This document shows, in pieces, positions 7,880 to 62,382 of a stretch of 64,000 bases of DNA (its first letter is position 1; every line of letters starts with the position of its first letter). Source of the DNA: Arenicola marina (taxonomy: Eukaryota > Annelida > Polychaeta > Arenicolidae); contig OZ025253.1 in NCBI GenBank assembly GCA_964019135.1, forward strand, positions 8,933,059-8,997,058. The letters run 5' to 3'. A program made the position numbers and the translations under genes. A model generated the notes under the pieces. The model was not told the origin of the DNA, did not search any database, and saw only the letters and a program-made list of their open reading frames with translations.

Positions 7880-9411
7880 AGGGTAAGGTGGGTGTTAGCA
7901 ATGGGCTTGTGGGCCAGATGGGTGTTGGTGATGGGTTCTTGCGTAAGTTGATGTTGGTTATGGGTTCTCAGGTAAGGTGAGCGTTGATGATGGGTTATTG
8001 GTAAAGGTGGGTGCTGGTGATAGTGTGGGTAAGGTGGGTGTTGGCGATGGATTCTAGGGTAAGGTGAGCGTTGATGATGGGTTATTGGTAAAGGTGGGTG
8101 CTGGTGATAGTGTGGGTAAGGTGGGTGTTGGCGATGGGTTCTAGGGTAAGGTGGGTGTTGGCGATGGATTCTAGGGTAAGGTGAGCGTTGATGATGGGCT
8201 ATTGGTAAAGGTGGGTGCTGGTGATAGTGTGGGTAAGGTGGGTGTTGGCGATGGATTCTAGGGTAAGGTGGGTGTTGATGATGGGTTATTGGTTAAGGTG
8301 GGTGCTGGTGATAGTGTGGGTAAGGTGGGTGTTGGCGATGGATTCTAGGGTAAGTTGGGTGTTGATGATGGGTTATTGGTAAAGGTGGGTGCTGGTGATA
8401 GTGTGGGTAAGGTGGGTGTTGGCGATGGGTTCTAGGGTAAGGTGGGTGTTGGCGATGGATTCTAGGGTAAGGTGAGCGTTGATGATGGGCTATTGGTAAA
8501 GGTGGGTGCTGGTGATAGTGTGGGTAAGGTGGGTGTTGGCGATGGATTCTGGGGTAAGGTGGGTGTTGATGATGGGTTATTGGTTAAGGTGGGTGCTGGT
8601 GATAGTGTGGGTAAGGTGGGTGTTGGCGATGGATTCTAGGGTAAGTTGGGTGTTGATGATGGGTCATTGGTTAAGGTGGGTGTTGGCGATAGTGTGGGTA
8701 AGGTGGGTGTTGGCGATGGATTCTAGGGTAAGTTGGGTGTTGATGATGGGTTATTGGTAAAGGTGGGTGCTGGTGATAGTGTGGGTAAGGTGGGTGTTGG
8801 CGATGGATTCTAGGGTAAGGTGGGTGTTGATGATGGGTTATTGGTTAAGGTGGGTGCTGGTGATAGTGTGGGTAAGGTGGGTGTTGGCGATGGATTCTAG
8901 GGTAAGTTGGGTGTTGATGATGGGTTATTGGTAAAGGTGGGTGCTGGTGATAGTGTGGGTAAGGTGGGTGTTGGCGATGGGTTCTAGGGTAAGGTGGGTG
9001 TTGGCGATGGATTCTAGGGTAAGGTGAGCGTTGATGATGGGCTATTGGTAAAGGTGGGTGCTGGTGATAGTGTGGGTAAGGTGGGTGTTGGCGATGGATT
9101 CTGGGGTAAGGTGGGTGTTGATGATGGGTTATTGGTTAAGGTGGGTGCTGGTGATAGTGTGGGTAAGGTGGGTGTTGGCGATGGATTCTAGGGTAAGTTG
9201 GGTGTTGATGATGGGTTATTGGTTAAGGTGGGTGCTGGTGATAGTGTGGGTAAGGTGGGTGTTGGCGATGGATTCTAGGGTAAGTTGGGTGTTGATGATG
9301 GGTCATTGGTTAAGGTGGGTTCTGGTGATGGGTCATTGGATAAGGTGGGTGCTGGTGATGGTGTTGTGGGTAATGTGGGTGTTGGTGGTTGGGTCATGGG
9401 TAAGGTGGTAA
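7880..9411. repeat. 87-bp composite minisatellite rich in GGTAAG
   Basis: The basic units are 27 and 30 bp, each starting near GTGGGTG and ending in GGTAAG or GGTAAAG. A 27+30+30 trimer makes an 87-bp higher-order unit (for example GTGCTGGTGA recurs at 8,011 and 8,098). Some blocks carry a fourth 30-bp unit. The left edge (7,880-8,000) and right edge (9,310-9,411) are more diverged. All unit lengths are multiples of three, so the + strand carries open frames of about 84 and 117 codons with a 29-residue repeat rich in Trp, Val and Met. No secretion signal or known repeat protein is evident, so I treat it as non-coding. A T-run plus CAG follows immediately at the right edge. Confidence 0.9.
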
Positions 9412-16988: not shown

Positions 16989-17935
16989 CTGGCGAGCGAT
17001 AATGCGCTGTGTTGTTCTGTCACTGGCAATGCGTTCATTCCCCATCGATGCTGGCGAGCGATAATGCGCTGTGTTGTTCTGTCACTGGCAATGCGTTCAT
17101 TCCCCATCGATGCTGGCGAGCGATAATGCGCTGTGAGGTTCTGTCACTGGCAATGCGTTCATTCCCCATCGATGCTGGCGAGCGATAATGCGCTGTGTTG
17201 TTCTGTCACTGGCAATGCGTTCATTCCCCATCGATGCTGGCGAGCGATAATGCGCTGTGTTGTTCTGTCACTGGCAATGCGTTCATTCCCCATCGATGCT
17301 GGCGAGCGATAATGCGCTGTGTTGTTCTGTCACTGGCAATGCGTTCATTCCCCATCGATGCTGGCGAGCGATAATGCGCTGTGTTGTTCTGTCACTGGCA
17401 ATGCGTTCATTCCCCATCGATGCTGGCGAGCGGTGATGCGCTGTGTTGTTCTGTCACTGGCAATGCGTTCATTCCCCATCGATGCTGGCGAGCGATAATG
17501 CGCTGTGTTGTTCTGTCACTGGCAATGCGTTCATTCCCCATCGATGCTGGCGAGCGATAATGCGCTGTGTTGTTCTGTCACTGGCAATGCGTTCATTCCC
17601 CATCGATGCTGGCGAGCGATAATGCGCTGTGTTGTTCTGTCACTGGCAATGCGTTCATTCCCCATCGATGCTGGCGAGCGATAATGCGCTGTGTTGTTCT
17701 GTCACTGGCAATGCGTTCATTCCCCATCGATGCTGGCGAGCGATAATGCGCTGTGAGGTTCTGTCACTGGCAATGCGTTCATTCCCCATCGATGCTGGCG
17801 AGCGATAATGCGCTGTGAGGTTCTGTCACTGGCAATGCGTTCATTCCCCATCGATGCTGGCGAGCGATAATGCGCTGTGAGGTTCTGTCACTGGCAATGC
17901 GTTCATTCCCCATCGATGCTGGCGAGCGGTGATGC
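16989..17935. repeat. 62-bp satellite, fifteen near-identical copies
   Basis: Units beginning CTGGCGAGCG repeat exactly every 62 bp from 16,989 to 17,918, with a 17-bp partial unit after that. Differences are few. A GTGTTG to GTGAGG variant occurs in the third unit and in the last three complete ones, and a GCGGTGATG variant in one internal unit and the terminal partial. Such uniformity points to recent expansion or ongoing gene conversion. Two weak open frames cross it but have no coding character. Confidence 0.97.
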
Positions 17936-32150: not shown

Positions 32151-32259
32151 GATTGAGGGTTTGAGGGTTCAGTTGTAATGAGATATTATGGTATTTTGAG
32201 GTGGGCCATTTATACCCTAACTCGTAACCGTGTTTTTTACGTCTCCGCCATCTCCCAGC

Positions 32260-34170
32260 ATAACCTGTTCCACTCTCACTCTAGTTACTCTTCCACTCCC
32301 AGTCCACAGCCATACCCGTCACCCTTTGCTCCTGTCACCCTCACGTTACTCTCACCACTTTCACCTTACCCATCACCCTTGGTCATTGTTCACTCACGAC
32401 TCTCACCATACCCATCACCCTCTTCTTCTTGTAGCCTTCATTTCTACCCTTCCGCCACCCTTGGCCCTTGTTACTTTTCAGTCCCACCATACCAATCACC
32501 CTTTGGTCCTTTCACTCACCACTCTCACCCTGTCCCTCATCCTTTGCTCCTTTCACCCACCACTCTCACCTTGTCCCTGATCGTTTGCTTTTTTCACCCA
32601 TCACTCTCACCCTGACCCTCATCCTTTGCTCCTTTCACCCACCACTCTCACCTTGTCCATCATCCTTTGCTCCTTTCACCCACCACTTTCACCTTGTCCA
32701 TCATCCTTTGCTCCTTTCACCCACCACTCTCACCCTTTCCCTCATCCTTTGCCCCTTTCACCCACCACTCGCACCCTGCCCCTTATCCTTTACCCCTTTC
32801 ACCCACCACTCTCACCCTGTCCCACGTCCTTTGCTCCTTTCACCCATCACTCTCACCCCGTCCCTTATCCTTTGCTCCTTTCACCCACCACTCTCATCCT
32901 GTCCCTTATCCTTTGCTCCTTTCACCCACCACTCTCACCCTGTCCCTCATCCTTTGCCCCTTTCACCCACCACTCGCACCCTGTCCCTCATCCTTTGCTC
33001 CTTTCACCCCCAACTCAACCTGTCCCTCATCCTTTGCCCCTTTCACCCACCACTCGCAACCTGTCTCTCATCCTTTGCTTCTTTCACCCACCAATGTCAC
33101 CCTGTCCCTGATTCTTGGCTCCCTTCACCCATCACTCTTACATTGGCCCTCATCCTTTGTTCCTTTCACCCACCACAGTCACCCTGTCCCTCGTCCTTTG
33201 CTCCTTTCACCCATCACTCTCACCCTGTCCCTCATCCTTTGCTCCTTTCACCCTGTTCCTCAGCCTTTGCTCCTTTCACCCACCACTCTCACCCTGTCCC
33301 TCGTCCTTTGCTCCTTTCACCCACCACTCTGGCCCTGTCCCTCTTCCGTTGCTGCTTTCACCCACCACTCACCCTGTCCCTCATCCTTTGCTCCTTTCAC
33401 CCACCACTCACCCTGTCCCTCATCCTTTGCTCCTTTCACCCACCATTCTCACCCTGTCCCTCATCCTTTGCTCCTTTCACCCAAAACTCAACCTGTCCCT
33501 CATCCTTTGCCCCTTTCAACCAACACTCGCACCCTGTCTCTGATCCTTGGCTCCTTTCACCCCCACTGTCACCCTGTCCCTGATTCTTGGCTCCCTTCAC
33601 CCATCACTCTTACATTGGCCCTCATCCTTTGTTCCTTTCACCCACCACACTCACCCTGTCCCTCGTCCTTTGCTCCTTTCACCCATCACTCTCACCCTGT
33701 CCCTCATCCTTTGCTCCTTTCACCCTGTTCCTCAGCCTTTGCTCCTTTCACCCACCACTCTCACCCTGTCCCTCATCCTTTGCTCCTTTCACCCACCCCT
33801 CTCGCCCTGTCCCTCATCCTTTGCTGCTTTCACCCACCACTCGCCCTGTCCCTCATCCTTTGCTCCTTTCACCCACCACTCACCCTGTCCCTCACCTTTT
33901 GCTCCTTTCACCCACCATTCTCACCCTGTCCCTCATCCTTTGCTCCTTTCACCCACCACTCTTACCCTGTCCCTCATCCTTTGCTCCTTTCACCCACCAC
34001 TCACCCTGCCCTACATCCTTTGCTCCTTTCACCCACTACTCTCACCCTGTCCCTCAACCTTTGCTCCTTTAACCCACCACTCTCCCACTGTCCCTCATCC
34101 TTTTCTGCTTTCACCCACCACTCTCACTCTGCCCCTGATCATTTGCTCCTTTCACCCACCACTCTCACCC
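32260..34170. repeat. Left, diverged part of the 41-bp satellite
   Basis: From about 32,500 the array consists of 41-bp units containing CTCATCCTTTGCTCCTTTCA and CACCACTCTCACCCTGTCC. Between 32,260 and 32,500 the units are strongly decayed (TTACTCTCACC, CCATACCCATCACC), giving a gradual edge. A rare marker variant (TGATTCTTGGCTCCCTTCA with TACATTGG) occurs near 33,111 and 33,583. The spacing of variants here does not follow the 2,370-bp order seen further right, so this segment was not part of that amplification. Confidence 0.95.
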
Positions 34171-37100
34171 TGTCCCTCATTCTTTGCTCCTTTCATCCCC
34201 CAACTCAACCTGTCTCTCATCCTTTGCTCCTTTCACCCACCACTGTCACCCTGTCCCTGATTCTTGGCTCCCTTCACCCATCACTCTTACATTGGCCCTC
34301 ATCATTTGTTCCTTTCACCCACCACACTCACCCTGTCCCTCGTCCTTTGCTCCTTTCACCCATCACTCTCACCCTGTCCCTCATCCTTTGCTCCTTTCAC
34401 CCTGTTCCTCAGCCTTTGCTCCTTTCACCCACCACTCTCACCCTGTCCCTCATCCTTTGCTCCTTTCACCCACCCCTCTCGCCCTGTCCCTCATCCTTTG
34501 CTGCTTTCACCCACCACTCGCCCTGTCCCTCATCCTTTGCTCCTTTCACCCACCACTCACCCTGTCCCTCACCTTTTGCTCCTTTCACCCACCATTCTCA
34601 CCCTGTCCCTCATCCTTTGCTCCTTTCACCCACCACTCTTACCCTGTCCCTCATCCTTTGCTCCTTTCACCCACCACTCACCCTGCCCTACATCCTTTGC
34701 TCCTTTCACCCACTACTCTCACCCTGTCCCTCAACCTTTGCTCCTTTCACCCACCACTCTCCCACTGTCCCTCATCCTTTTCTGCTTTCACCCACCACTC
34801 TCACTCTGCCCCTGATCATTTGCTCCTTTCACCCACCACTCTCACCCTGCCCCTGATCATTTGCTCCTTTCACCCACCTCCCTCACCCTGTCTCTCATCC
34901 TTTGCTCCTTTCACCCAGCACACTCACCCTGTCCCTGGTCCTTTGCTCCTGTCACGCACCACACTCACCCTGTCCCTCTTCCTTTGCTCCTTTCACCCAC
35001 CACTCACCCTGTCCCTCATCCTTTGCTCCTTTCACCCACTACTCTCACCCTGTCTCTCATCCTTTGCTCCTTTCACCCACCATTCTCACCCTGTCCCTCA
35101 TCCTTTGCTCCTTTCACCCACCACTCTTACCCTGTCCCTCATCCTTTGCTCCTTTCACCCACCACTCCCCCTGCCCTACATCCTTTGCTCCTTTCACCCA
35201 CTACTCTCACCCTGTCCCTCAACCTTTGCTCCTTTCACCCACCACTCTCCCACTGTCCCTCATCCTTTTCTGCTTTCACCCACCACTCTCACTCTGCCCC
35301 TGATCATTTGCTCCTTTCACCCACCACTCTCACCCTGTCTCTCATCCTTTGCTCCTTTCACCCACCACTCTCACCCTGTCCCTCATCCTCTGCTCCTTTC
35401 ACCCCCAAATCAACCTGTCCCTCATCCTTTGCCCCTTTCACCCACCACTCGCACCCTGTCCCTCAACCTTTGCTCTTTTCACCCACCATTCACCCTGTCC
35501 CTCATCCTTTGCCCCTTTCACCCACCACTCGCACCCTGTCCCTTATCCTTTGCTCCTTTCACCCACCACTCTCACCCTGTCCCTCATCCTTTGCCTCTTT
35601 CACCCACCACTCGCACCCTGTCCCTTATCCTTTGCTCCTTTCACCCACCATTCATCCTGTCCCTCATCCTTTGCCCCTTTCACCCACCACTCGCACCCTG
35701 TCCCTTATCCTTTGCTCCTTTCACCCACCACTCTCACCCTGTCCCTCATCCTTTGCCCCTTTCACCCACCACTCTCACCCTGTCCCTCATCCTTTGCTCC
35801 TTTCACCCACCACTCTCACCCTTTCCCTCATCCTTTGCCCCTTTCACCCACCACTCGCACCCTGCCCCTTATCCTTTGCCCCTTTCACCCACCACTCTCA
35901 CCCTGTCCCACGTCCTTTGCTCCTTTCACCCATCACTCTCACCCTGTCCCTTATCCTTTGCTCCTTTCACCCACCACTCTCACCCTGTCCCTTATCCTTT
36001 GCTCCTTTCACCCACCACTCTCACCCTGTCCCTCATGCTTTGCCCCTTTCACCCACCACTCGCACCCTGTCCCTCATCCTTTGTTCCTTTCACCCCCAAC
36101 TCAACCTGTCCCTCATCCTTTGCCCCTTTCACCCACAACTCGCAACCTGTCTCTCATCCTTTGCTCCTTTCACCCACCACTGTCACCCTGTCCCTGATTC
36201 TTGGCTCCCTTCACCCATCACTCTTACATTGGCCCTCATCCTTTGTTCCTTTCACCCACCACAGTCACCCTGTCCCTCGTCCTTTGCTCCTTTCACTCAT
36301 CACTCTCACCCTGTCCCTCATCCTTTGCTCCTTTCACCCTGTTCCTCAGCCTTTGCTCCTTTCACCCACCACTCTCACCCTGTCCCTCGTCCTTTGCTCC
36401 TTTCACCCAGCACTCTGGCCCTGTCCCTCATCCGTTGCTGCTTTCACCCACCACTCACCCTGTCCCTCATCCTTTGCTCCTTTCACCCACCACTTACCCT
36501 GTCCCTCATCCTTTGCTCCTTTCACCCACCATTCTCACCCTGTCCCTCATTCTTTGCTCCTTTCACCCCCAACTCAACCTGTCTCTCATCCTTTGCTCCT
36601 TTCACCCACCACTGTCACCCTGTCCCTGATTCTTGGCTCCCTTCACTCATCACTCTTACATTGGCCCTCATCTTTTGTTCCTTTCACCCACCACACTCAC
36701 CCTGTCCCTCGTCCTTTGCTCCTCTTCACCCATCACTCTCACCCTGTCCCTCATCCTTTGCTCCTTTCACCCTGTTCCTCAGCCTTTGCTCCTTTCACCC
36801 ACCACTCTCACCCTGTCCCTCATCCTTTGCTCCTTTCACCCACCCCTCTCGCCCTGTCCCTCATCCTTTGCTGCTTTCACCCACCACTCGCCCTGTCCCT
36901 CATCCTTTGCTCCTTTCACCCACCACTCACCCTGTCCCTCACCTTTTGCTCCTTTCACCCACCATTCTCACCCTGTCCCTCATCCTTTGCTCCTTTCACC
37001 CACCACTCTTACCCTGTCCCTCATCCTTTGCTCCTTTCACCCACCACTCACCCTGCCCTACATCCTTTGCTCCTTTCACCCACTACTCTCACCCTGTCCC

Positions 37101-40100
37101 TCAACCTTTGCTCCTTTCACCCACCACTCTCCCACTGTCCCTCATCCTTTTCTGCTTTCACCCACCACTCTCACTCTGCCCCTGATCATTTGCTCCTTTC
37201 ACCCACCACTCTCACCCTGCCCCTGATCATTTGCTCCTTTCACCCACCTCCCTCACCCTGTCTCTCATCCTTTGCTCCTTTCACCCAGCACACTCACCCT
37301 GTCCCTGGTCCTTTGCTCCTGTCACGCACCACACTCACCCTGTCCCTCTTCCTTTGCTCCTTTCACCCACCACTCACCCTGTCCCTCATCCTTTGCTCCT
37401 TTCACCCACTACTCTCACCCTGTCTCTCATCCTTTGCTCCTTTCACCCACCATTCTCACCCTGTCCCTCATCCTTTGCTCCTTTCACCCACCACTCTTAC
37501 CCTGTCCCTCATCCTTTGCTCCTTTCACCCACCACTCCCCCTGCCCTACATCCTTTGCTCCTTTCACCCACTACTCTCACCCTGTCCCTCAACCTTTGCT
37601 CCTTTCACCCACCACTCTCCCACTGTCCCTCATCCTTTTCTGCTTTCACCCACCACTCTCACTCTGCCCCTGATCATTTGCTCCTTTCACCCACCACTCT
37701 CACCCTGTCTCTCATCCTTTGCTCCTTTCACCCACCACTCTCACCCTGTCCCTCATCCTCTGCTCCTTTCACCCCCAAATCAACCTGTCCCTCATCCTTT
37801 GCCCCTTTCACCCACCACTCGCACCCTGTCCCTCAACCTTTGCTCTTTTCACCCACCATTCACCCTGTCCCTCATCCTTTGCCCCTTTCACCCACCACTC
37901 GCACCCTGTCCCTTATCCTTTGCTCCTTTCACCCACCACTCTCACCCTGTCCCTCATCCTTTGCCTCTTTCACCCACCACTCGCACCCTGTCCCTTATCC
38001 TTTGCTCCTTTCACCCACCATTCATCCTGTCCCTCATCCTTTGCCCCTTTCACCCACCACTCGCACCCTGTCCCTTATCCTTTGCTCCTTTCACCCACCA
38101 CTCTCACCCTGTCCCTCATCCTTTGCCCCTTTCACCCACCACTCTCACCCTGTCCCTCATCCTTTGCTCCTTTCACCCACCACTCTCACCCTTTCCCTCA
38201 TCCTTTGCCCCTTTCACCCACCACTCGCACCCTGCCCCTTATCCTTTGCCCCTTTCACCCACCACTCTCACCCTGTCCCACGTCCTTTGCTCCTTTCACC
38301 CATCACTCTCACCCTGTCCCTTATCCTTTGCTCCTTTCACCCACCACTCTCACCCTGTCCCTTATCCTTTGCTCCTTTCACCCACCACTCTCACCCTGTC
38401 CCTCATGCTTTGCCCCTTTCACCCACCACTCGCACCCTGTCCCTCATCCTTTGTTCCTTTCACCCCCAACTCAACCTGTCCCTCATCCTTTGCCCCTTTC
38501 ACCCACAACTCGCAACCTGTCTCTCATCCTTTGCTCCTTTCACCCACCACTGTCACCCTGTCCCTGATTCTTGGCTCCCTTCACCCATCACTCTTACATT
38601 GGCCCTCATCCTTTGTTCCTTTCACCCACCACAGTCACCCTGTCCCTCGTCCTTTGCTCCTTTCACTCATCACTCTCACCCTGTCCCTCATCCTTTGCTC
38701 CTTTCACCCTGTTCCTCAGCCTTTGCTCCTTTCACCCACCACTCTCACCCTGTCCCTCGTCCTTTGCTCCTTTCAGCCAGCACTCTGGCCCTGTCCCTCA
38801 TCCGTTGCTGCTTTCACCCACCACTCACCCTGTCCCTCATCCTTTGCTCCTTTCACCCACCACTTACCCTGTCCCTCATCCTTTGCTCCTTTCACCCACC
38901 ATTCTCACCCTGTCCCTCATTCTTTGCTCCTTTCACCCCCAACTCAACCTGTCTCTCATCCTTTGCTCCTTTCACCCACCACTGTCACCCTGTCCCTGAT
39001 TCTTGGCTCCCTTCACTCATCACTCTTACATTGGCCCTCATCCTTTGTTCCTTTCACCCACCACACTCACCCTGTCCCTCGTCCTTTGCTCCTCTTCACC
39101 CATCACTCTCACCCTGTCCCTCATCCTTTGCTCCTTTCACCCTGTTCCTCAGCCTTTGCTCCTTTCACCCACCACTCTCACCCTGTCCCTCATCCTTTGC
39201 TCCTTTCACCCACCCCTCTCGCCCTGTCCCTCATCCTTTGCTGCTTTCACCCACCACTCGCCCTGTCCCTCATCCTTTGCTCCTTTCACCCACCACTCAC
39301 CCTGTCCCTCACCTTTTGCTCCTTTCACCCACCATTCTCACCCTGTCCCTCATCCTTTGCTCCTTTCACCCACCACTCTTACCCTGTCCCTCATCCTTTG
39401 CTCCTTTCACCCACCACTCACCCTGCCCTACATCCTTTGCTCCTTTCACCCACTACTCTCACCCTGTCCCTCAACCTTTGCTCCTTTCACCCACCACTCT
39501 CCCACTGTCCCTCATCCTTTTCTGCTTTCACCCACCACTCTCACTCTGCCCCTGATCATTTGCTCCTTTCACCCACCACTCTCACCCTGCCCCTGATCAT
39601 TTGCTCCTTTCACCCACCTCCCTCACCCTGTCTCTCATCCTTTGCTCCTTTCACCCACCACACTCACCCTGTCCCTGGTCCTCTGCTCCTGTCACGCACC
39701 ACACTCACCCTGTCCCTCTTCCTTTGCTCCTTTCACCCACCACTCACCCTGTCCCTCATCCTTTGCTCCTTTCACCCACTACTCTCACCCTGTCTCTCAT
39801 CCTTTGCTCCTTTCACCCACCATTCTCACCCTGTCCCTCATCCTTTGCTCCTTTCACCCACCACTACTACCCTGTCCCTCATCCTTTGCTCCTTTCACCC
39901 ACCACTCCCCCTGCCCTACATCCTTTGCTCCTTTCACCCACTACTCTCACCCTGTCCCTCAACCTTTGCTCCTTTCACCCACCACTCTCCCACTGTCCCT
40001 CATCCTTTTCTGCTTTCACCCACCACTCTCACTCTGCCCCTGATCATTTGCTCCTTTCACCCACCACTCTCACCCTGTCTCTCATCCTTTGCTCCTTTCA

Positions 40101-42125
40101 CCCACCACTCTCACCCTGTCCCTCATCCTCTGCTCCTTTCACCCCCAAATCAACCTGTCCCTCATCCTTTGCCCCTTTCACCCACCACTCGCACCCTGTC
40201 CCTCAACCTTTGCTCTTTTCACCCACCATTCACCCTGTCCCTCATCCTTTGCCCCTTTCACCCACCACTCGCACCCTGTCCCTTATCCTTTGCTCCTTTC
40301 ACCCACCACTCTCACCCTGTCCCTCATCCTTTGCCTCTTTCACCCACCACTCGCACCCTGTCCCTTATCCTTTGCTCCTTTCACCCACCATTCATCCTGT
40401 CCCTCATCCTTTGCCCCTTTCACCCACCACTCGCACCCTGTCCCTTATCCTTTGCTCCTTTCACCCACCACTCTCACCCTGTCCCTCATCCTTTGCCCCT
40501 TTCACCCACCACTCTCACCCTGTCCCTCATCCTTTGCTCCTTTCACCCACCACTCTCACCCTTTCCCTCATCCTTTGCCCCTTTCACCCACCACTCGCAC
40601 CCTGCCCCTTATCCTTTGCCCCTTTCACCCACCACTCTCACCCTGTCCCACGTCCTTTGCTCCTTTCACCCATCACTCTCACCCTGTCCCTTATCCTTTG
40701 CTCCTTTCACCCACCACTCTCACCCTGTCCCTTATCCTTTGCTCCTTTCACCCACCACTCTCACCCTGTCCCTCATGCTTTGCCCCTTTCACCCACCACT
40801 CGCACCCTGTCCCTCATCCTTTGTTCCTTTCACCCCCAACTCAACCTGTCCCTCATCCTTTGCCCCTTTCACCCACAACTCGCAACCTGTCTCTCATCCT
40901 TTGCTCCTTTCACCCACCACTGTCACCCTGTCCCTGATTCTTGGCTCCCTTCACCCATCACTCTTACATTGGCCCTCATCCTTTGTTCCTTTCACCCACC
41001 ACAGTCACCCTGTCCCTCGTCCTTTGCTCCTTTCACTCATCACTCTCACCCTGTCCCTCATCCTTTGCTCCTTTCACCCTGTTCCTCAGCCTTTGCTCCT
41101 TTCACCCACCACTCTCACCCTGTCCCTCGTCCTTTGCTCCTTTCACCCAGCACTCTGGCCCTGTCCCTCATCCGTTGCTGCTTTCACCCACCACTCACCC
41201 TGTCCCTCATCCTTTGCTCCTTTCACCCACCACTTACCCTGTCCCTCATCCTTTGCTCCTTTCACCCACCATTCTCACCCTGTCCCTCATTCTTTGCTCC
41301 TTTCACCCCCAACTCAACCTGTCTCTCATCCTTTGCTCCTTTCACCCACCACTGTCACCCTGTCCCTGATTCTTGGCTCCCTTCACCCATCACTCTTACA
41401 TTGGCCCTCATCCTTTGTTCCTTTCACCCACCACACTCACCCTGTCCCTCGTCCTTTGCTCCTTTCACCCATCACTCTCACCCTGTCCCTCATCCTTTGC
41501 TCATTTCACCCTGTTCCTCAGCCTTTGCTCCTTTCACCCACCACTCTCACCCTGTCCCTCATCCTTTGCTCCTTTCACCCACCCCTCTCGCCCTGTCCCT
41601 CATCCTTTGCTGCTTTCACCCACCACTCGCCCTGTCCCTCATCCTTTGCTCCTTTCACCCACCACTCACCCTGTCCCTCACCTTTTGCTCCTTTCACCCA
41701 CCATTCTCACCCTGTCCCTCATCCTTTGCACCTTTCACCCACCACTCTTACCCTGTCCCTCATCCTTTGCTCCTTTCACCCACCACTCACCCTGCCCTAC
41801 ATCCTTTGCTCCTTTCACCCACTACTCTCACCCTGTCCCTCAACCTTTGCTCCTTTCACCCACCACTCTCCCACTGTCCCTCATCCTTTTCTGCTTTCAC
41901 CCACCACTCTCACTCTGCCCCTGATCATTTGCTCCTTTCACCCACCACTCTCACCCTGCCCCTGATCATTTGCTCCTTTCACCCACCTCCCTCACCCTGT
42001 CTCTCATCCTTTGCTCCTTTCACCCACCACACTCACCCTGTCCCTGGTCCTTTGCTCCTTTCACGCACCACACTCACCCTGTCCCTCTTCCTTTGCTCCT
42101 TTCACCCACCACTCACCCTGTCCCT
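34171..42125. repeat. 2,370-bp higher-order repeat of a 41-bp satellite, ~3.4 copies
   Basis: About 58 monomers of 41 bp (some shortened to 38 or 36) form a 2,370-bp block that recurs nearly unchanged. The marker variant TGATTCTTGGCTCCCTTCA lies in pairs starting about 36,197 and 36,629, again at 38,567 and 38,999, and at 40,937 and 41,369. The distinctive CTCCCTCACCCTG unit recurs at about 34,877, 37,247, 39,617 and 41,986. The last step is 2,369 bp because one extra base (CTCCTCTTCACC) is absent from the final copy. I noticed only scattered single-base differences. The + strand lacks stops in the repeat, so a 2,593-codon frame and several of 770-960 codons exist. They are artefacts. Confidence 0.96.
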
Positions 42126-42210
42126 CAGCATTTGCTCCTTTCACCCACCACTCTCACCCTGTCCCTCATCCTTTGCCCCTTTCACCCACCACTCTCCCCC
42201 TATTCACTTC
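42126..42210. repeat. Right edge of the 41-bp satellite
   Basis: Two further 41-bp monomers with private variants (CTCAGCATTTG) follow the last higher-order copy. The sequence then loses the period near 42,200 and passes into C-rich unique DNA with a C run at about 42,338. Confidence 0.85.
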
Positions 42211-43355
42211 GGCATTCCCCCCACTTTCTGCTTCTTCTCTGTCCTTTCTTCATTTAGCAGCATTTTCCCCCTGACTCGGTACATCTCAGCACACCCCTGG
42301 ATCACCAACCCATTCACCCCTCTCCTACATTACCCTCCCCCCCCCCCCCACCCACTGCCCCATCCTCAACCCCACCGGTCGCCGCGGGCCTCCCTCATTC
42401 CAAGAAACGATGTGAGGCCAAAATATGCAAACGACATGCTAATGAGGGACAGATTGGTCATTCTTTCTGCGATTAGCTTCCGGTTTTAATATTTCAGATA
42501 CTTCAGACGCTACCCAGAAGACGATGAACGCCGCTGAAGGCAAGGTCACCTTACATCATGGGCCGCATGGTGGCGCTGCAAACACACGGACATGTGGACG
42601 GGGAACCCGCGCAGGCGCAATGACTCTCTGCTGGATTGTTGGACAGGGTCGGGGGCCCGCCCTGCAAACTTCCTCACTAGAGACTCCAACATAGAGGTCT
42701 CGCTTGATGACAGTTGTCACCTTATGAACTCAGAGTAGGGTCTCATAACATTCGACTAGCTGGTCACCTGGTAGAATATTTGATACACGTTTCTACCGAC
42801 TATACTTAGCAATATTATTTCATTTTGTAACATAACAGAGTATATATGAAAGAATATTTTCTTAATATTCTTAATTCAACTGGTACAACTGACTATCGAC
42901 TATGCAAGAGCCAGCGCGGGGTCAACAATAAAATGAAGGTAGTTGTATTTTCATTTTTGACTGTCTTTTCTGAATATGCGACCAACACGCTTGATAACAT
43001 TGTCATTTGAGGACCATCTGGTGGATCTGTTTTGGCAGGCCCCAGTTCTACTAGCCCCAAATTGAGAAAAACGCGCCAAAAACACTATGCGCATCTGAGT
43101 CAACGCGCCTACGACCGTCATGTGGACTGAGACTAAAGCTAGCCAACCTTGCAAACCTGACTTGACTCCAGTGACTGCGGTAACGTGCATTCGTATGGGA
43201 GGCTCACTCCGATGTTTTACGTGCACACGCTCGCTTGATCCGTGTAGATATACGTCACAGTGGTGCGCGCTAGGAGACTCTGGGGGACCCTCTTCAGCCG
43301 TTATCTCCGGGCTCTTTTTGCAGGCTCCCGCAGTGGGTTCTCTTCTTCGGCGTTG
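42211..43355. other. Unique DNA, no recognisable gene
   Basis: The interval contains C-rich spacer to about 42,400 and then mixed-composition DNA. A weak CTCF-like match (CCGCATGGTGGCGCT, 42,563-42,577) is present. A + frame encodes GDSGGP at 43,273-43,290 but lacks the other serine-protease features. No exon is called. Confidence 0.5.
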
Positions 43356-59545: not shown

Positions 59546-61287
59546 ACCCACCACATCTGTCGCGGAGGCATTCCGTGTGGTCTTCGGAGTGAAGCGGTGA
59601 AACAACTCACGGTCGTATCTCGAACAGACTCAGCCGGGAGGACAGCACAAAACGTAGCGCCAGATACAGAGATGTATGTTTGGTATTTGGCGAGGGGACA
59701 CAGCTGGTATAGATATTATCCACGCTTGCTTCCTTGCAGCAAACCCTGGACGGCAGACCGAGTCGTTGAACATTCAAACCCCACTTATGTCTTGCGACCG
59801 TTTCCTACCAACCCATTGCATCGCACGGCTTCCTTGGGCCGGTTTAGATTTGGCGTACACGCAGTTGATCTAAAACACGAATCCATCCATCCATCTATTG
59901 CGACAATAATTTAGGCCCCACTGCCATCAGCTCATTACTCATTAGATGCTTCTGGATGTAACCTTTAAACCGTGGATTTGTGGTAATGCCGTCTTTACTA
60001 ATTTGGTCCATCAGTTTCGTTGGTCAACAAGAAATGATGATGAAATAATCTGGATTTAAATAAGCGTAGAAGTAAAAAATAAATATAATACGTTATTTAT
60101 TTCCTCATTGCTACCGTATTACCACAAATCGCCCGCCCCATGCGTCCTCTACTCCTTACCTCGCCAGGACATGGCGATATGTGCTTCTACTTTTAATGAC
60201 AAACCCTGTTAGGTGTTTCCCCCGCCACGTTATTTGTCTTACCGGATGTATCCTAACACGGTCTGGTCACCGGCGAGACAAATAGGTTGATTACACTCGG
60301 ACGCCTCACCATATTAGGCACATTCGTCTTCTTCCGCCAGCCTGTCATGGATCCCATATCTCTACGCCTGCTGCGCACTACGCGGACTCATTACCGGCAG
60401 GTTTTTTGGCCGTGAAGCGCTTCGCGGAGTCGGAACCCTCTTGGTGGAGGGAGATAGGAAGGTTTTTTTTCCGCTTTTGGAGAAGACGTATAAGGTTGGG
60501 GCTTGGTTCAGTCTAAGACACTTTAAAGACTGCGCCTTCCAGGCCAGCGAGATATGGGGGAGATTAACTAGACAATAATGCAACCTAGAGGAGGGGCTGG
60601 CTGTGACGTAACGCGTAGTGGGGTGGATGGGCCTATGGGGACGTATAGAAGGATTATTCTGTCCTTGCTTGATACAGTTCAATCCTTGGAAAAAATAGGG
60701 GTCTGGCTCTTATCTTCTTACCATTGTTTGCAAGAAAGGTTCATATATATATATATATAGCTATGGATCATATATTCCATTTAAAGATCGCTATGAGGCA
60801 GAGTTTTCGTCCGACAAACGAAATGTACGAGATAATGAAACGAATATACCATTGTTCGTTGAAACAGCCCCCGATATATGTCAACGAGCCTTTCAAAAGG
60901 TGGAGTTTATGCGTCCTATCTGAGCCCACGTCTTGATCCCGCTGTCCAGTTGCCAGTAAACATGGCCACCGCTGCGGGCAGTAGGACAATGGGGGGATGG
61001 CCCACTATCCGGGTGTCTGTGTATGAACCATGGCGACCCGACCGATAGGGTAATGTATATATATAGAGAGATATATATATACATAATCGTGTAACAGCGA
61101 ATGTTACGTCGTATGTCATAAAATTTTGTTGAGATCGTGCTTCTTACGTCGCTACACAGGGGAGACTTTAATACAAAATGATGCTCGTTCTCGACAGCAT
61201 TACACGTTATGCCGTGGGCGTGTTATTGGGGGGCCGGCGGGGAGTTTAGTGTTGAGGCATTGTCCCTACCTAGTGTACTCGCTGAAA

Positions 61288-62382
61288 GGTCACGGTAGCT
61301 TGTTTCATCTAACAGGCCCACCCCTCACGGCCCTGCCGGCTATCCACTCCATACGACATAGGTCAAGGTAGTTTGTTTTATCTAACGGGCCCACCCCTCA
61401 CGGCCCTGCCGGCTATCCACTCCATACGACATAGGTCAAGGTAGTTTGTTTTATCTAACGGGCCCACCCCTCACGGCCCTGCCGGCTATCCACTCCATAC
61501 GACATAGGTCAAGGTAGTTTGTTTTATCTAACGGGCCCACCCCTCACGGCCCTGCCGGCTATCCACTCCATACGACATAGGTCAAGGTAGTTTGTTTTAT
61601 CTAACGGGCCCACCCCTCACTGCCCTGCCGGCTATCCACTCCATACGACATAGGTCAAGGTAGTTTGTTTTATCTAACGGGCCCACCCCTCACGGCCCTG
61701 CCGGCTATCCACTCCATACGACATAGGTCAAGGTAGTTTGTTTTATCTAACGGGCCCACCCCTCACGGCCCTGCCGGCTATCCACTCCATACGACATAGG
61801 TCAAGGTAGTTTGTTTTATCTAACGGGCCCACCCCTCACGGCCCTGCCGGCTATCCACTCCATACGACATAGGTCAAGGTAGTTTGTTTTATCTAACGGG
61901 CCCACCCCTCACGGCCCTGCCGGCTATCCACTCCATACGACATAGGTCAAGGTAGTTTGTTTTATCTAACGGGCCCACCCCTCACTGCCCTGCCGGCTAT
62001 CCACTCCATACGACATAGGTCAAGGTAGTTTGTTTTATCTAACGGGCCCACCCCTCACGGCCCTGCCGGCTATCCACTCCATACGACATAGGTCAGGGTA
62101 GTTTGTTTTATCTAACGGGCCCACCCCTCACTGCCCTGCCGGCTATCCACTCCATACGACATAGGTCAAGGTAGTTTGTTTTATCTAACGGGCCCACCCC
62201 TCACGGCCCTGCCGGCTATCCACTCCATACGACATAGGTCAGGGTAGTTTGTTTTATCTAACGGGCCCACCCCTCACTGCCCTGCCGGCTATCCACTCCA
62301 TACGACATAGGTCAAGGTAGTTTGTTTTATCTAACGGGCCCACCCCTCACGGCCCTGCCGGCTATCCACCCCATACAACATA
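61288..62382. repeat. 73-bp satellite, exactly fifteen copies
   Basis: Units beginning GGTCAAGGTAGTTTG repeat every 73 bp from 61,288 to 62,382 with no indel. The first unit (GGTCACGGTAGCTTGTTTCA, ACAGGCCC) and the last (CCACCCCATACAACATA) are the most divergent, as expected for array edges. Internal variants CACTGCCC and GTCAGGG recur 146 bp apart near 62,090-62,280, showing a dimeric order on the right. Every unit carries GGGCCC and, at its start, two near AGGTCA half-sites in direct repeat. Confidence 0.98.

What the first reader, a model, noticed from the sequence alone, without database searches (positions are those of the whole stretch)
34171..42125. A 2,370-bp higher-order repeat built from ~58 monomers of 41 bp, ~3.4 nearly identical copies
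Marker monomers recur at exactly 2,370-bp steps (36,197, 38,567 and 40,937; likewise 36,629, 38,999 and 41,369), with only scattered single-base differences and a single 1-bp length change in the last copy. Neighbouring monomers within a block differ much more from each other. This is the organisation of centromeric-type higher-order satellites: old monomer divergence, very recent block amplification. The left 1.9 kb of the same family (32.26-34.17 kb) lies outside the amplification and preserves an older state.
Basis: seen in the sequence. Interest (0 to 1): 0.7.

Follow-up and report, generated by a model that had tools for sequence, protein, structure and literature searches.

The report
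One-locus minisatellite with block duplications
The 2,370-base repeating block is real, but it belongs to an ordinary tandem repeat found at a single place in an invertebrate genome rich in such repeats, and nothing here links it to a centromere.

Summary
A 41-bp tandem array (32,496-42,201 by TRF, with a degenerate left edge from about 32,250) repeats from 34,171 on in blocks of 2,370 bp, 59 monomers each, 3.4 copies. Neighbouring full blocks are 99.7-99.8% identical; monomers within a block average 86%.

The centromere reading is not supported. At up to 3 mismatches the consensus monomer has 130 matches in the 867-Mb assembly, and 130 in this window. The site lies at 8.97 Mb of a 46.5-Mb contig; the left flank is single-copy. 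Weaker matches elsewhere are, where examined, G-rich minisatellites with other periods; distant kinship with some is not excluded.

Best explanation: a locus-specific, probably functionless minisatellite grown by homologous unequal exchange at several scales (11, 12, 17 and 59 monomers). The middle block looks like a recombinant, B3-like on the left and B1-like on the right, as a 2-to-3 expansion would leave (three shared sites). A different 40-bp single-locus array on C1 has the same architecture (2,437 bp at 99.9%, lag 4,515). The left part is not purely older: 33,563-34,172 is 99.7% identical to block 1. Toy neutral simulations did not reproduce so large a block share. New member of a known kind.

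The parts
32250..32509 (+). probable degenerate left edge: 6 diverged monomers (mean 9.2 mismatches to consensus each, gaps not counted); forced alignment, only the last few bases (from 32,496) lie inside the TRF array
32510..33562 (+). left 41-bp monomers; 32,592-33,518 is an older copy (97.1%) of block stretch 35,678-36,604
33563..34172 (+). copy of 34,240-34,849, lag 677 bp = 17 monomers, 99.67% identical: a recent duplication outside the block train
34171..36540 (+). block copy 1 (B1), 2,370 bp, 59 monomers
36541..38910 (+). block copy 2 (B2); mosaic: B3-like at the left end, B1-like at 37,288; private variants at 36,673 and 38,776
38911..41279 (+). block copy 3 (B3)
41280..42201 (+). partial fourth copy (P4); 41,306-42,191 is 98.9% identical to 34,197-35,082

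Best explanation
A locus-specific minisatellite (VNTR-type array) in an invertebrate genome. A 41-bp monomer was tandemly multiplied and its copies diverged. Homologous unequal exchange (crossing-over, or an equivalent replication or repair process) between misaligned copies then duplicated runs of 11, 12, 17 and finally 59 monomers. The 59-monomer block went from two to three copies when B3's left part joined B1's right part to make B2. Shown: single locus at the tested stringency, block identities, mosaic sites, a parallel case on C1. Inferred: the exchange mechanism, the order of events, and lack of function.
For: Single locus: 130 matches in the genome and 130 in the window; the left flank (821 bp) matches only itself. 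Block borders: lags 432, 472, 677, 2,370 and 3,086 bp span 11, 12, 17, 59 and 77 monomers (counted from monomer start to monomer start, so the whole number is partly by construction), and no truncated monomer stands at a border: the only short ones, 28 bp, lie inside the copies. Mosaic B2: B2 and B3 share states at B1 coordinates 34,278 and 34,355 that differ from left copy, B1 and P4; B1 and B2 share G at 34,918 where B3 and P4 have C; B2 has private variants at 36,673 and 38,776. Genome habit: 24% of the window outside this array is tandem repeat. Of the 13 other arrays tested, 6 hold a segment of 500 bp or more at 98.5% identity or better, 2.5 or more monomers apart, while neighbours are below 93% alike (cut-offs set after seeing the table); the C1 40-bp array, whose 94 matches all list at one locus, has 2,437 bp at 99.9%, lag 4,515. 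Of 150 flanking frames only two gave weak Pfam matches, E 0.001 and 0.0021.
Against: The mosaic rests on three shared sites, and gene conversion could give the same pattern. Of the 13 other arrays, 5 show no such segment and 2 are too uniform to tell. Simulations of neutral exchange never gave a block share as large as observed (0.49 of the array) with comparably diverged neighbours: 0 of 240 runs reached 0.4 and 7 reached 0.2; in a second design 70 of 180 runs had neighbours below 0.92, none reached 0.4, 3 reached 0.2, and 60 of the 70 had lost all identity. Monomers of the best-matching arrays elsewhere resemble the 41-bp unit more than shuffles of themselves do, so a wider kinship is possible. 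No reads, second haplotype or expression data were available.
Confidence: 0.86

Rival explanations
1. Centromeric or pericentromeric higher-order satellite: the array recruits kinetochore or heterochromatin and was amplified as such.
For: Block structure resembles alpha-satellite HORs: low identity within, about 99.7% between blocks.
Against: One locus of about 10 kb in 867 Mb at <=3 mismatches; in most studied animals and plants centromeres hold megabase-scale arrays and the most abundant tandem repeat (PMC4053949, passages). The same architecture occurs at the single-locus C1 array.
Confidence: 0.02
2. Assembly artefact: a loop in the assembly graph, or two haplotypes joined head to tail, repeated one or two real blocks.
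For: A loop passed twice would also give a middle copy with B3's left and B1's right part; block differences of 0.2-0.4% are of the size that heterozygosity can have (recalled).
Against: B2 carries private variants (36,673, 38,776), and B1 and B3 have their own. No other contig holds the array. The assembly reaches telomere repeats at the start of C2.
Confidence: 0.07
3. A coding repeat: the 2,608-codon open frame at 34,139-41,965 encodes a repetitive protein; 2,370 is divisible by 3.
For: Very long open frames. The three + frames hold 14, 7 and 4 stops in about 3,235 codons, fewer than the mean of 33 in 200 base-composition shuffles.
Against: All three + frames are nearly open at once, because a stop-poor unit that is 81% C+T is repeated; shuffles ignore that. 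A 41-bp unit shifts frame at every monomer, and the step into the last copy is 1 bp short.
Confidence: 0.02
4. A regulatory or structural element: the 9.7-kb strand-biased C+T tract forms unusual DNA (G-quadruplex, triplex, R-loop) that acts on a gene or stalls replication and so drives its own growth.
For: 81% pyrimidine on one strand; 140 overlapping loose G-run motifs (loops up to 12) on the other.
Against: Only 5 strict G4 motifs (loops up to 7); no gene recognised in 150 of 305 flanking frames. Nothing here tests function.
Confidence: 0.05

Closest known systems
Minisatellites / VNTR loci of animal euchromatin (for example human MSY1, PMC2599865, abstract and section list seen)
   Same: Unit of tens of bp, array within 0.5-30 kb (PMC8122249, passages), variant monomers, single locus
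   Different: Here the last events copied 59 monomers at once; MSY1 length mutants changed 1-3 units in a 77-unit allele (abstract)
Higher-order repeats of primate alpha satellite and of candidate centromere repeats (PMC4053949, section 11 read)
   Same: Multimers much more alike than the monomers within
   Different: Single 10-kb locus, 41-bp monomer, 3.4 copies, no abundance, no centromere evidence
40-bp array C1:74,424,440-74,436,075 of the same genome (L021)
   Same: Single locus (94 matches), neighbour identity 0.70, kb-scale near-identical segments
   Different: Another monomer (alignment to the 41-bp unit is reached by 5 of 200 shuffles); lags 4,515 and 1,256

Membership tests
Minisatellite / VNTR | Unit of about 10-100 bp in tandem (range recalled) | tested here: met
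   41-bp consensus, 241.9 copies by TRF
Minisatellite / VNTR | Array of 0.5-30 kb at one locus | tested here: met
   130 matches in genome, 130 in window; about 10 kb
Minisatellite / VNTR | Length polymorphism between alleles | not testable with these tools
   no reads; the array is on one contig only
Higher-order repeat (organisation) | Multimers more alike than monomers | tested here: met
   0.999 same position across blocks versus 0.857 within
Centromeric satellite | High copy number, shared by chromosomes | tested here: not met
   single locus at <=3 mismatches
Centromeric satellite | Centromere protein binding or primary constriction | not testable with these tools
   no ChIP or FISH data
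Protein-coding repeat | Reading frame kept by selection | tested here: inconclusive
   all three + frames nearly open; fewer stops than composition shuffles, but shuffles ignore the repeat; 41-bp unit shifts frame

The most novel reading that the evidence does not exclude
This genome has unusually active large-block exchange, so that single-locus minisatellites across it become higher-order arrays without any centromere function, with something beyond neutral exchange (for example homology-reinforced misalignment or break-induced copying) favouring blocks of tens of monomers.
Probability: 0.25. Interest if true: 0.42.

Novelty: new member of a known kind. Interest (0 to 1): 0.18.

Why it matters
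It is a clear example of higher-order repeat structure at what looks like a single non-centromeric locus, so block structure alone should not be read as a centromere signal. The genome, with about a quarter of the rest of this window in tandem repeats, would be a good place to measure large-block exchange.

Tried and rejected
Homologues elsewhere: a 2.4-kb query gave 73 matches at 65-84% identity. I looked at 8 fetched loci (L009-L016, three of them one array on C9) and 8 overlapping or further 10-kb regions (L020-L027), not at all 73 places: their arrays have units of 6, 14, 20, 21, 25, 26, 39, 40 bp and so on. I first took this as composition only. A check weakened that: of 10 monomers, 9 picked through their similarity reach scores that 0-8 of 200 shuffles of themselves reach, and 1 not so picked (L036) is reached by 27 of 200. 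Picking the best of a whole genome can explain this; shared short motifs are not enriched clearly in 173 kb not chosen by similarity (GGGTGAGAG 4 against 6 for the reversed control; GACAGGGTG 6 against 0; GGGTGAGGG 22 against 6), though one 14-mer of the unit has 167 matches in the genome against 14 for the reversed control, many of them in this array and in a few clusters.

Genes: no Rfam match and no tRNA; of 150 open frames (the longest of 305 of 55 codons or more, mostly outside tandem repeats), one matched PufX (E 0.001) and one ANF_receptor (E 0.0021), weak among 150 tests; not followed.

Organism: MHC class I gave no match, but no control genome rang either, so nothing follows. Mitochondrial COX1 (C762) has in-frame TGA (13) and, by my recall of the conserved sites, AGR at serine sites, ATA at methionine sites and AAA at lysine sites: the invertebrate code. 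The PDB search of COX1 did not name the species; I name none.

Simulation: neutral exchange did not reach the observed block share; the homology-dependent version was badly tuned (arrays homogenised or lost all identity).

Random sampling for an unbiased control was not possible. The comparison arrays were picked by similarity (L020-L027), are in unplaced contigs (L028-L037), or are in the window; of 22 arrays of 1 kb or more, 14 went into and 8 were left out (L019; L022 at 1,898; L027; L030; L031; L032; window 49,558 and 61,287).

Papers: searches. Seen: PMC4053949 (passages and section 11), PMC8122249 (passages), PMC2599865 (abstract and section list). I make no claim that this array is absent from print.

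Full report
What is there. The window is C6:8,933,059-8,997,058 of an 867-Mb assembly in 762 contigs; C6 is 46.5 Mb and C2 begins with telomere repeat. Mitochondrial COX1 reads with invertebrate-code features (site judgement recalled). A tandem array of a 41-bp unit, 81% C+T on the + strand, spans 32,496-42,201 by TRF, with a probable degenerate edge from about 32,250.

Block structure. From 34,171 on the array repeats with a period of 2,370 bp, 59 monomers, for 3.4 copies. B1 against B2 matches at 2,366 of 2,371 columns, B2 against B3 at 2,363 of 2,370, B1 against B3 at 2,362 of 2,371. In one 59-monomer span there are 44 monomers of 41 bp, 12 of 39, 2 of 28 and 1 of 42; 48 are distinct; they average 0.857 identity, neighbours 0.861, same positions of successive blocks 0.999. 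The longest run of identical monomers at a fixed offset is 50, against at most 3 in 100 shuffles.

More than one level. Other duplications lie inside and beside the blocks: lags 432 (11 monomers), 472 (12), 677 (17) and 3,086 (77). The stretch 33,563-34,172 is 99.67% identical to 34,240-34,849, so the left part took part in recent change; 32,592-33,518 is 97.1% identical to its block counterpart. The lags were counted from monomer start to monomer start, so whole numbers are partly by construction; what speaks for homology-guided exchange is that no truncated monomer stands at a border, the 28-bp ones lying inside the copies.

How the third block arose. In an alignment of left copy, B1, B2, B3 and P4, B2 and B3 share states at B1 positions 34,278 and 34,355 that differ from the left copy, B1 and P4; further right, B1 and B2 share G at 34,918 where B3 and P4 have C. 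B2 is thus B3-like on the left and B1-like on the right, as one misaligned crossover between two-block arrays would give; gene conversion could too. B2 also has private variants, which argues against a mere assembly loop. Only three shared sites carry this inference.

Not a centromere family. The consensus monomer at up to 3 mismatches has 130 matches in the genome and 130 in the window. DNA matches elsewhere (73) are, in the loci examined, minisatellites with other periods. They share short G-rich motifs with this unit beyond what shuffles give, which selection of the best matches can explain; unselected sequence shows no clear enrichment. The left flank is single-copy; the right flank holds a dispersed repeat. 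Centromere repeats are usually the most abundant tandem repeat of a genome (PMC4053949, passages).

A habit of this genome. Tandem repeats cover 24% of the window outside the array. I tested 14 of the 22 arrays of at least 1 kb for long near-identical segments: besides this one, 6 of 13 have a segment of at least 500 bp at 98.5% identity or better, 2.5 or more monomers apart, while neighbours are under 93% alike; 5 of 13 do not (one, L025, has 499 bp); 2 of 13 are nearly uniform and say nothing. The cut-offs were set after seeing the table and the loci were not randomly chosen. The strongest is a 40-bp array on C1, 94 matches at one locus, with 2,437 bp at 99.9%.

Against my reading. Toy models of neutral exchange with block sizes up to 90 monomers did not reach the observed share of 0.49: 0 of 240 runs reached 0.4, and 0 of the 70 comparable runs among 180 in a second, badly tuned design. 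Either the array was caught soon after an unusual amplification, or exchange favours existing block lengths, or the models are too simple. Lack of function is inferred: no gene, RNA or tRNA was recognised, but expression and chromatin were not testable.

Noticed in passing
window 42,665-43,110: Right flank holds a dispersed repeat: 43 matches besides itself at 67-84% identity on many contigs, from 40 scored of 292 candidates; possibly a SINE (label recalled).
   Followed up: partly
window 7,881-9,408: G-rich minisatellite (TRF period 87) with block repeats: 552 bp at 99.5% (lag 552) and 304 bp at 99.7% (lag 291).
   Followed up: partly
L035 (C500:809-10,000): 78-bp tandem array on an unplaced 81-kb contig; 877 genome matches to a 41-base piece, only the first places listed, those all on C500; 1,979 bp at 99.7%, lag 1,806. 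A better satellite candidate than the finding.
   Followed up: partly
window 16,989-17,935; 61,287-62,382; L019 3,909-5,645: Three minisatellites (62-, 73- and 51-bp units) with 98-99% matches between copies, so probably recently amplified.
   Followed up: no
C10:21,475,283-21,485,009: Cluster of a 14-mer at spacings that are mostly multiples of 67 bp, probably another large minisatellite with irregular, block-like spacing.
   Followed up: no
window about 32,000: Cumulative GC skew peaks here: G-rich minisatellites lie to the left and C-rich ones just to the right.
   Followed up: no
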